Below are positions 3,139-3,690 of a stretch of 7,564 nucleotides of DNA, one piece after another. The position numbers were made by a program, and so were the translations under genes. Numbering within the stretch: position 1 is the stretch's first letter; each line of letters begins with the position of its first letter. Under the pieces are notes generated by a model. It saw nothing but the letters and a program-made list of their open reading frames with translations, ran no database searches and had not been told where the DNA came from. This stretch comes from JBDRGX01 sp043817485 [NCBI: bacterium] (GTDB taxonomy: Bacteria > JBDRGX01): the NCBI GenBank assembly GCA_043817485.1, contig JBDRGX010000043.1, forward strand, positions 1 through 7,564. The letters run 5' to 3'.

Positions 3139-3168
3139 TTGTCATCTCGACCGAAGGGAGAGATCTCA
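3139..3168 (+). repeat. Inner terminal inverted repeat, left arm (hairpin)
   Basis: This arm is the reverse complement of 3462-3491 except for one base. It also folds alone: ATCTC (3144-3148) pairs with GAGAT (3160-3164), and CC (3151-3152) pairs with GG (3157-3158) around a GAAG loop. GAGATCTC (3160-3167) is a perfect palindrome. The arm contains the Shine-Dalgarno of the nuclease gene. Confidence 0.85.
3156..3160 (+). promoter_or_regulatory. Shine-Dalgarno of the GIY-YIG gene, inside the repeat arm
   Basis: GGGAG (3156-3160) lies 7 bases before the ATG at 3168 and fixes that start. In RNA the site would be partly paired within the left-arm hairpin, which could keep translation low. At the matching place in the right arm the sequence reads GAGAG, the only difference between the arms. 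Confidence 0.6.
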
Positions 3169-3464
3169 TGGCCAAAGAACATCATTATTATGTATACCTG
3201 TTGACAAACAAAAGCAACAAAGTTATGTATATTGGCATAACCAATAATCTTCAGCAACGAGTGTATGAGCACAAAATGAAAATGGGTTTAGGTTTTACGG
3301 AAAAGTACAATGTAAATAAACTGGTTTATTTTGAAGAGACGACTGATGTCTATTCTGCAATAGCAAGGGAGAAGGAACTCAAAAAATGGCGTCGAGAGAA
3401 AAAAAATAATCTGGTTATTGCTGTCAATTCTAAGTGGAAGGATCTAAATGAAGAGGTATTTTGA
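3168..3464 (+). CDS. Small GIY-YIG nuclease-domain protein (UPF0213/COG2827-like)
   Basis: This is a 98-residue single-domain protein made of a GIY-YIG endonuclease fold and little else. The first motif is VYLL (9-12) with Y10, the second is YIG (21-23) with Y21, and the catalytic arginine is in QQRVYEH (R31, with H35). The acidic metal ligand is E68 in AREKELKKWRRE. All catalytic positions are present, so it is probably active on DNA. The C-terminus has no added DNA-binding domain, so specificity would have to come from the domain itself or a partner. The ATG at 3168 is preferred over the in-frame TTG at 3114. The extra 18 residues would be a translation of the inverted repeat, and the family begins near the YYVYLL strand. 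The gene fits exactly between two inverted-repeat arms. Its codon use (CTG, CTC leucines) and G+C content differ from neighbours, suggesting transfer. The in vivo function of this family is not settled. Confidence 0.85.
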   Translation: MAKEHHYYVYLLTNKSNKVMYIGITNNLQQRVYEHKMKMGLGFTEKYNVNKLVYFEETTDVYSAIAREKELKKWRREKKNNLVIAVNSKWKDLNEEVF

Positions 3465-3491
3465 GATCTCTCTCTTCGGTCGAGATGACAA
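3462..3491 (-). repeat. Inner terminal inverted repeat, right arm (hairpin with UUCG loop)
   Basis: This arm is the inverted copy of 3139-3168 with one mismatch, and it starts at the TGA stop of the nuclease gene. It can fold on its own: ATCTC (3466-3470) pairs with GAGAT (3482-3486), closing near C(UUCG)G at 3474-3479, a very stable tetraloop. There is no following T-run, so it is not a classical terminator, although it would protect a 3' end. Confidence 0.85.
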
Positions 3492-3640: not shown

Positions 3641-3690
3641 TTCCACCCTCTGTCCTAATGGACAACCATGCCAGCAGGGGACATTAGGAG
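3641..3690. repeat. Hairpin-forming, locally G+C-rich repeat upstream of ispF
   Basis: A G+C-rich patch in A+T-rich DNA holds two alternative hairpins. One is TGTCC (3651-3655) with GGACA (3660-3664) around TAAT. The other is TCCTAATG (3653-3660) with CATTAGGA (3682-3689) around 21 bases. The CCACCC...GGACA...CCAGCAGGGGAC layout reminds me of another dispersed palindromic repeat seen in other bacteria; this is recollection, not a search result. It lacks a T-run, so it is not an obvious terminator. If transcribed it would sit in the ispF leader. Confidence 0.45.

What the first reader, a model, noticed from the sequence alone, without database searches (positions are those of the whole stretch)
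3139..3491. A one-gene GIY-YIG cassette whose start and stop codons are built into a 30-nt inverted repeat
The two arms match at 29 of 30 positions and abut the coding sequence with no slack: the left arm ends on the A of ATG, the right arm begins on the TGA. A 98-residue GIY-YIG nuclease is the only content. This packaging suggests the nuclease and its palindromic ends move or spread as a unit, parallel to REP/RAYT pairs but with a different nuclease fold. Family knowledge: GIY-YIG enzymes act as homing endonucleases and in the transposon-like Penelope elements, so a mobility role is plausible. Mobility of this compact form is inference.
Basis: partly seen in the sequence, partly recalled or inferred. 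Interest (0 to 1): 0.82.

Follow-up and report, generated by a model that had tools for sequence, protein, structure and literature searches.

The report
Nuclease paired with scattered DNA hairpins
A tiny bacterial gene for a DNA-cutting enzyme sits between two copies of a short hairpin sequence, and related enzymes in many bacterial phyla mostly lie beside hairpins of the same design that are scattered through their genomes, so the enzyme may be the missing partner that spreads this class of repeated DNA.

Summary
In detail: 30-nt arms (29/30) at 3139-3168 and 3462-3491 enclose a 98-aa GIY-YIG nuclease gene (3168-3464). Each arm is one tagged hairpin, TGTCAT-nnn-GA..GA-n'n'n'-ATCT. Of 80 usable homologous genes, 69 have such a hairpin within 250 bp and 52 on both sides (2 of 262 distant control genes). 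Stem pairing covaries (165 of 173 sites; shuffled mean 32). Host genomes carry 0-762 copies (median 23.5). In a Bifidobacterium sample all 5 gene-bearing genomes are hairpin-rich, against 3 of 107 gene-less ones. Where a genome has several such nucleases, each has its own hairpin type (22 of 23 loci). Some homologs lie between CGTC-tagged REPs of the kind that a 2013 survey said lack a dedicated transposase. Y1 (RAYT-type) transposases were not found in 11 of 36 hairpin-rich genomes. The cassette is missing at the same site in relatives (Azospirillum, Shinella, Bifidobacterium); the window copy has foreign codon use. It looks like a REP/RAYT-like partnership built on an unrelated nuclease. Cleavage and transposition are inferred, exact ends unresolved, and the fusion of start and stop codon with the arms is a detail of this copy.

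The parts
3139..3168 (+). Left tagged hairpin: tag TGTC 3140-3143, stem ATCTC 3144-3148 with GAGAT 3160-3164, GA/GA 3149-3150 and 3158-3159, CC/GG 3151-3152 and 3156-3157, loop GAA 3153-3155, tail CTCA 3165-3168 (its A is the A of ATG)
   Evidence: class defined
3168..3464 (+). 98-aa minimal GIY-YIG nuclease gene; Y10, Y21, G23, R31, H35, E68, N87 kept in 80-81 of 81 aligned homologs; GC3 36% against 6-10% in 7 other window genes
3462..3491 (-). Right tagged hairpin in inverted orientation (tag outward, TGTC = 3490-3487); begins with the TGA stop codon; one base differs from the left arm

Best explanation
The cassette is a cognate pair: a minimal GIY-YIG endonuclease and the tagged DNA hairpins that it recognises. 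As with REP sequences and their RAYT nucleases, the nuclease (one to a few divergent copies per genome) probably acts in trans on many gene-less hairpins, cutting at or next to the TGTC/CGTC tag of a hairpin extruded in single-stranded or supercoiled DNA, so that hairpins (often as inverted pairs) are copied or moved to new intergenic sites. The gene with its own flanking hairpins is gained and lost at sites and passes between phyla. Shown: specific association, arm specificity within genomes, covariation, co-distribution in one genus (and weakly in one family), presence/absence at syntenic sites, foreign composition. Inferred: recognition, cleavage, mobilisation and its chemistry.
For: 69 of 80 homologous genes have a tagged hairpin within 250 bp, 52 on both sides; control ORFs over 750 bp away in the same loci: 2 of 262 on both sides; 211 hairpins near the genes against 1-10 for eight control tag/outer-pair choices. 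Density 5.3 per kb within 250 bp, 0.08-0.40 per kb beyond 500 bp. Stem covariation 165 of 173, shuffled mean 32, max 47 of 1000. Hairpin pattern in 79 of 80 host genomes, 57 with 10 or more, max 762, reversed-pattern control at most 3. Bifidobacterium, 112 genomes: 5 with gene hold 38-583 hairpins; 3 of 107 without gene hold 10 or more (Fisher 4e-7, kinship ignored). Within genomes the left and right arms of one gene match each other better than any cross pair of family members in 22 of 23 loci of 10 genomes (mean 0.87 against 0.56). Hairpin and protein distances correlate, r 0.27, for cross-phylum pairs r 0.25, 0 of 5000 permutations each. Other GIY-YIG genes of at most 41% identity in the same genomes: 0 of 12 with hairpins (the cut was set after the fact, see Tried and rejected). 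Presence/absence at one site: Azospirillum suf operon, Shinella, Bifidobacterium. Foreign GC3 in the window.
Against: 11 of 80 genes have no hairpin within 250 bp by the strict search, and 13 of 32 further family members have none. Hairpin-rich genomes in which the gene was not found exist: Bifidobacterium G067, G099, G112 and three of 247 in the Lachnospiraceae sample, one with 264 copies; that sample rests on only 3 gene hits, one weak and with no hairpins. Some hosts have few copies (23 of 80 under 10, one none), and the hosts were chosen for having the gene. Tags of the nearest hairpins point outward, as in the window, in 32 of 52 genes flanked on both sides, not in all. Exact insertion ends and target duplications were not resolved. 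No cleavage data exist here. Folding energy of the window arms is no better than shuffles. Labels on the protein tree are clustered by phylum (36 changes, shuffled mean 49.6), so transfer is not unlimited. Whether the window's own genome holds more hairpins could not be tested.
Confidence: 0.7

Rival explanations
1. Hairpin housekeeping: the nuclease is a domesticated or defensive enzyme that resolves or trims these hairpins (Slx1-like structure-specific nuclease), and its gene is kept next to its substrate; something else spreads the hairpins.
For: Nearest solved folds are UPF0213, then Slx1; nuclease matches number 1-3 in 40 of 44 genomes; the specificity data fit a substrate relation without mobilisation.
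Against: Patchy distribution, many phyla, foreign codon use and presence/absence at sites look like a selfish element; 104 of 107 gene-less Bifidobacterium genomes have 0-5 hairpins.
Confidence: 0.17
2. Classical REP/RAYT or IS200-type movement: a Y1 tyrosine transposase moves the hairpins and the GIY-YIG gene is only a passenger.
For: 25 of 36 hairpin-rich genomes hold some Y1_Tnp match; RAYT-flanking repeats are similar in kind (PMC3116915 passages).
Against: 11 of 36 hairpin-rich genomes gave no match, including all 8 Bifidobacterium genomes tested, with up to 583 hairpins; the arm type goes with the individual GIY-YIG gene within genomes.
Confidence: 0.05
3. The hairpins are regulators (terminators or mRNA stabilisers) of the nuclease gene, or merely mark intergenic insertion hot spots.
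For: REPs are reported to lie mostly downstream of genes and to be plausibly transcribed (abstract, PMC3733652); some right arms carry the stop codon.
Against: Other genes in the same loci seldom have them on both sides (2 of 262); arms match their own gene within genomes; other GIY-YIG genes of at most 41% identity lack them (0 of 12). Other acquired intergenic genes were not used as controls.
Confidence: 0.05
4. A homing-type element: the nuclease cuts hairpin-free alleles and repair copies the cassette in.
For: GIY-YIG homing enzymes do this (PMC1564403 passages); cassette presence/absence at conserved intergenic sites.
Against: Homing of the cassette does not explain many unlinked hairpins or arm-nuclease matching; no further domain in the 98-aa protein.
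Confidence: 0.03

Closest known systems
REP / REPIN sequences with RAYT (TnpA-REP) tyrosine transposases
   Same: Short tagged imperfect palindromes in many copies, mostly inverted neighbours, beside a one-to-few-copy nuclease; lineage-specific pairing; patchy distribution
   Different: Nuclease is GIY-YIG, not HUH/Y1; tag is TGTC/CGTC, not GTAG; no Y1 match in 11 of 36 hairpin-rich genomes
CGTC-tagged REPs (Di Nocera 2013), including Neisseria dRS3 and Rickettsia RPE-4/RPE-6
   Different: The window type has a short stem with tandem GA mismatches and a CTCA tail; the survey found no dedicated transposase
UPF0213/YhbQ and prokaryotic Slx1-like standalone GIY-YIG proteins (family names recalled)
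   Same: Minimal single-domain fold, nearest solved structure 1zg2
   Different: 26% identity to 1zg2; 12 GIY-YIG genes of at most 41% identity to the query in the same genomes have no hairpins
GIY-YIG homing endonucleases and Penelope-like elements
   Same: Same nuclease superfamily in selfish DNA (PMC1564403 passages)
   Different: No reverse transcriptase or extra domain in the 98-aa protein; many hairpins apart from the gene

Membership tests
GIY-YIG nuclease superfamily | Pfam PF01541 match and conserved catalytic residues | tested here: met
   E 7.2e-18, over the curated cut-off; Y10, Y21, R31, H35, E68, N87 in 80-81 of 81 (mapping to known catalytic residues is recalled)
REP/RAYT | Partner nuclease is a Y1/HUH tyrosine transposase | tested here: not met
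   Partner is GIY-YIG; no PF01797 match in 11 of 36 hairpin-rich genomes
REP/RAYT | GTAG tag | tested here: not met
   The window arms begin TTGTCAT; T before GTC in 190 of 211 (GTC itself was required by the search)
REP/RAYT | High-copy repeats with single- to few-copy nuclease | tested here: met
   In related genomes: median 23.5 copies, max 762; 1-8 nuclease matches per genome in 44 hosts. Not testable in the window's own genome
CGTC REPs (Di Nocera 2013) | CGTC, TGTC or CCTC tag and AT as first stem pairs | tested here: met
   Window arms TGTC-AT
CGTC REPs (Di Nocera 2013) | Stem of 8-9 bp | tested here: not met
   Window left arm: 5 bp, tandem GA, 2 bp; longer-stem forms flank homologs, e.g. 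L229, L230
CGTC REPs (Di Nocera 2013) | CCA tail (most) | tested here: not met
   Window tail CTCA; CCA tails beside homologs in L003, L177, L218, L229, L230, L232
Insertion sequence or MITE | Terminal inverted repeats with target-site duplication | tested here: inconclusive
   Inverted arms present; ends not resolvable in the compared relatives
Homing endonuclease | Encoded in intron or intein, or cuts only the uninterrupted site | not testable with these tools
   Cleavage needs biochemistry; introns and inteins were not searched for

The most novel reading that the evidence does not exclude
A class of mobile DNA not described before: GIY-YIG-dependent palindromic repeats, in which a nuclease of about 95 residues, without tyrosine chemistry, mobilises tagged hairpins in trans in at least eighteen named bacterial phyla, and which accounts for the CGTC REPs, Neisseria dRS3 and perhaps the Rickettsia palindromic elements.
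Probability: 0.5. Interest if true: 0.95.

Novelty: new variant of a known kind. Interest (0 to 1): 0.85.

Why it matters
The 2013 survey of tagged palindromic repeats left open what moves the CGTC superfamily. The data here name a specific candidate enzyme, small enough for direct biochemistry, with its likely substrates written next to each gene. If it mobilises them, a second, unrelated nuclease fold has evolved a REP/RAYT-like life, and common intergenic repeats of many, largely uncultured, bacteria gain an origin.

Tried and rejected
Exact empty site: Bifidobacterium, Azospirillum and Shinella show presence/absence, but flanking spacers are too diverged to fix the ends or a target duplication. 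The four Rhizobium tumorigenes-group plasmids aligned all carry the gene. In Anabaena the two flanks lie apart in the relatives. For Aeromonas no other record covered the site. The flank search for Rhizobium CIAT894 was listed but its sites were not read.

Viral contigs gave one distant homolog, phage records none.

Hairpin stability: DNA folding of the window arms is not better than shuffles; the case for pairing rests on covariation. RAYT as mobiliser was tested and weakened (the 36 genomes were the 27 of 80 hosts with 50 or more copies, 7 more from the Bifidobacterium sample and 2 of the Lachnospiraceae sample).

Corrections: two of the 28 'paralogs' (L225, L235) were the loci L074 and L084 fetched again; they were dropped and 6 more added, giving 32 of the 34 further matches at E up to 1.5e-17 (G050:C35 and G049:C97 were not fetched). 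Of the 15 weaker matches 14 were fetched: 12 at no more than 41% identity had no hairpin; 2 short matches (42% over 80 aa, 50% over 32 aa) had hairpins on both sides, and I take them, after the fact, for broken family members. With all 14 as controls the comparison is 19 of 32 against 2 of 14, Fisher p 0.009. In one search one control match (G056) was mistyped as 0, so the reversed-pattern total is 25, not 24.

Full report
Observation. The inverted repeat and the gene are as described: arms 3139-3168 and 3462-3491, 29 of 30 complementary, no chance match in 200 shuffles of the window, a 98-aa ORF between them that matches Pfam GIY-YIG at 7.2e-18. The rest of the window is an AT-rich gene run (TldD, TldE, IspF, an unnamed protein, RibD, RibE, PanC; names recalled from the translations, not from a search). 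The cassette lies between TldE and IspF. The gene's third-codon-position GC is 36%, against 6-10% in the seven others, so it looks like a newcomer.

What the arms are. Each arm is an imperfect hairpin with an unpaired tag: TGTC, then AT plus three variable bases, GA, a short inner stem and loop, GA, the complement of the three bases, AT, and a tail. I searched the flanks of these and of the window for GTCAT-nnn...n'n'n'-AT with 5-30 nt between, measuring from the start of the protein match and from the next in-frame stop. Of 80 genes with at least 100 bp on both sides (79 database loci and the window; L045 dropped, its contig ends at the gene), 57 have one on the left, 64 on the right, 52 on both, 69 on either, within 250 bp. 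Of 262 control ORFs more than 750 bp away in the same loci, 22 have one on the left, 22 on the right and 2 on both; with nearer ORFs included, 67, 75 and 13 of 399. Eight other tag/outer-pair choices gave 1-10 sites against 211. Density falls from 5.3 per kb next to the gene to 0.08-0.40 per kb beyond 500 bp. Features not required by the search are conserved: T before GTC in 190 of 211, G and A after the stem in 198 and 192, A and G on the far side in 189 and 176, C after the closing AT in 204. The 70 loci with a hairpin, the window included, carry 18 named phylum labels, with 4 unlabelled among the 69 used.

Pairing. When sites are taken by tag and GA signals without asking for pairing, 165 of 173 sites (61 loci) have all three variable stem positions complementary; shuffling the right halves gives a mean of 32 and a maximum of 47 in 1000. 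The energy of the window arms alone is unremarkable. Neighbouring hairpins within 100 bp, the pair across the gene excluded, are inverted in 124 of 150 cases, which recalls the doublets called REPINs (PMC3116915, passages).

Copies in the genomes. A degenerate pattern for the commonest form finds 0-762 copies in the 80 host genomes, 5142 in all, median 23.5, 57 genomes with 10 or more, 1 with none. The same pattern read backwards totals 25 (24, corrected) and never exceeds 3. Nuclease matches number 1-8 in the 44 of 80 hosts that I searched, 1-3 in 40 of them. This resembles the RAYT situation: many repeats, few nucleases.

Association. In a Bifidobacterium genus sample (112 genomes) the gene was found in 5; these have 38, 205, 171, 151 and 583 hairpins; of 107 without it 3 have 44, 187 and 64 and the rest 0-5 (with a pattern slightly different from that; Fisher 4e-7, which ignores kinship). 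In two of the three exceptions the only GIY-YIG match lies in a long frame (UvrC by its length, my reading), in the third there was none. In 250 genomes of the family of the Lachnospiraceae locus L044, three have a match at E up to 1e-10: two clear ones (383 and 74 hairpins) and a weak one at 38% identity (none); of the other 247, three have 264, 22 and 16 and the rest 0-3.

Specificity. In the same genomes I took 32 of 34 further family members: 19 have hairpins, 15 on both sides. Of 15 weaker GIY-YIG matches 14 were taken: the 12 at no more than 41% identity have none, while two short matches at 42% and 50% identity have them on both sides. Where a genome has two or more members flanked on both sides (10 genomes, 23 loci), the left and right arms of one gene match each other better than any cross pair in that genome in 22 of 23 (mean 0.87 against 0.56). 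Over 69 loci hairpin distance follows protein distance (r 0.27; for cross-phylum pairs r 0.25; 0 of 5000 permutations each). Phyla are mixed on the protein tree, though not at random (36 label changes, minimum 18, shuffled mean 49.6; few columns, many open forks), and the five nearest rows to the window protein come from four phyla.

Sites with and without. In Azospirillum lipoferum 4B the gene lies between sufB and sufC, with a pair of CGTCATCCCCGCGAAGGCGGGGATCCA-type hairpins on each side. The 11 other Azospirillum records in the listing that align across the site cover only 72-74% of that query; five were aligned and have short spacers without the gene. In Shinella three plasmids carry the gene; in the one examined it lies within a 139-nt inverted repeat made of two hairpin pairs; two others, aligned at the same spot, lack it. 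In Bifidobacterium two genomes have it between an FtsX-like and a response-regulator-like gene (named from translations); of 13 further relatives fetched, nine had both anchors and none of these has it there, four could not be judged. Ends could not be fixed to the base.

Link to known repeats. Di Nocera and colleagues (PMC3733652; abstract, passages and section 6 seen) describe CGTC-tagged REPs, the tag often TGTC or CCTC, stems opening with AT, mostly head-to-head pairs, including Neisseria dRS3 and Rickettsia RPE-4/6, and conclude that they apparently lack a dedicated transposase. The window's own arms differ (short stem with tandem GA, CTCA tail), so I place them in a wider class and not in the published families. 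Y1 transposases gave no match in 11 of 36 hairpin-rich genomes, among them 8 of 8 Bifidobacterium, and a match in 25.

Protein. The model is confident (pLDDT 90). The best solved match is UPF0213 1zg2 (E 3e-4), then, above E 0.03, Slx1 and the UvrC N-domain; the catalytic residues are kept (their roles recalled). It has no extra domain, so recognition must lie in the small domain itself or in the hairpin shape.

In print. Ten searches of the held open-access library listed no title or abstract opening that links GIY-YIG proteins to such repeats; several of them listed only part of their hits (20 of 37, 15 of 33, 20 of 249). A 2025 REP survey does not contain 'GIY' (PMC12306157, term search), nor a GIY-YIG survey 'palindrom' (PMC1564403, term search). 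Subscription papers and preprints were not searched.

Mechanism proposed. Shown here: a specific, lineage-matched partnership of nuclease and tagged hairpin, with gain and loss at sites. Inferred: the nuclease recognises the hairpin of its own type, cuts near the tag, and host synthesis or repair places the hairpin or hairpin pair elsewhere; the gene's own cassette moves rarely or by horizontal transfer. The main rival is a housekeeping nuclease acting on hairpins spread by something else.

Noticed in passing
window 3653-3689: A palindrome, TCCTAATG...CATTAGGA with a 21-nt loop, in the same intergenic region: possibly another repeat element.
   Followed up: no
window 2821, 2842, 2977, 3605: Four copies of GAATTCAG, three of them within CAGAATTCAGAAT, on both sides of the cassette.
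   Followed up: no
L150 (G123), FtsX to response-regulator spacer: In this Bifidobacterium relative the spacer is filled with an array of palindromes resembling GGTCACGCGATGG...CCATCGCGTGACC, a different repeat family.
   Followed up: no
G067, G099, G112: Bifidobacterium-sample genomes with 44-187 hairpins in which no short GIY-YIG gene was found: possible recent loss, useful for testing whether hairpin turnover stops.
   Followed up: partly
L251 and L252; G001:C70:3540-3653: Short or truncated matches of the nuclease: two lie amid hairpins, and a partial match lies near the intact gene of L005.
   Followed up: partly
L002 1492-1776: Planktothrix plasmid homolog (57% identical) lies between an MmeI-type restriction gene and DISARM drmA, with no inverted repeat found around it.
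   Followed up: no
L175 2448-2610 and related plasmids: CCTC-tagged hairpin pairs beside the Rhizobium tumorigenes gene, two pairs in three of the aligned plasmids and one in L51/94; part of this stretch also matches other plasmids.
   Followed up: partly
13 of 81 homologous loci: Right-hand hairpins supply the stop codon of the nuclease gene, 9 from the tail and 4 from the tag.
   Followed up: yes
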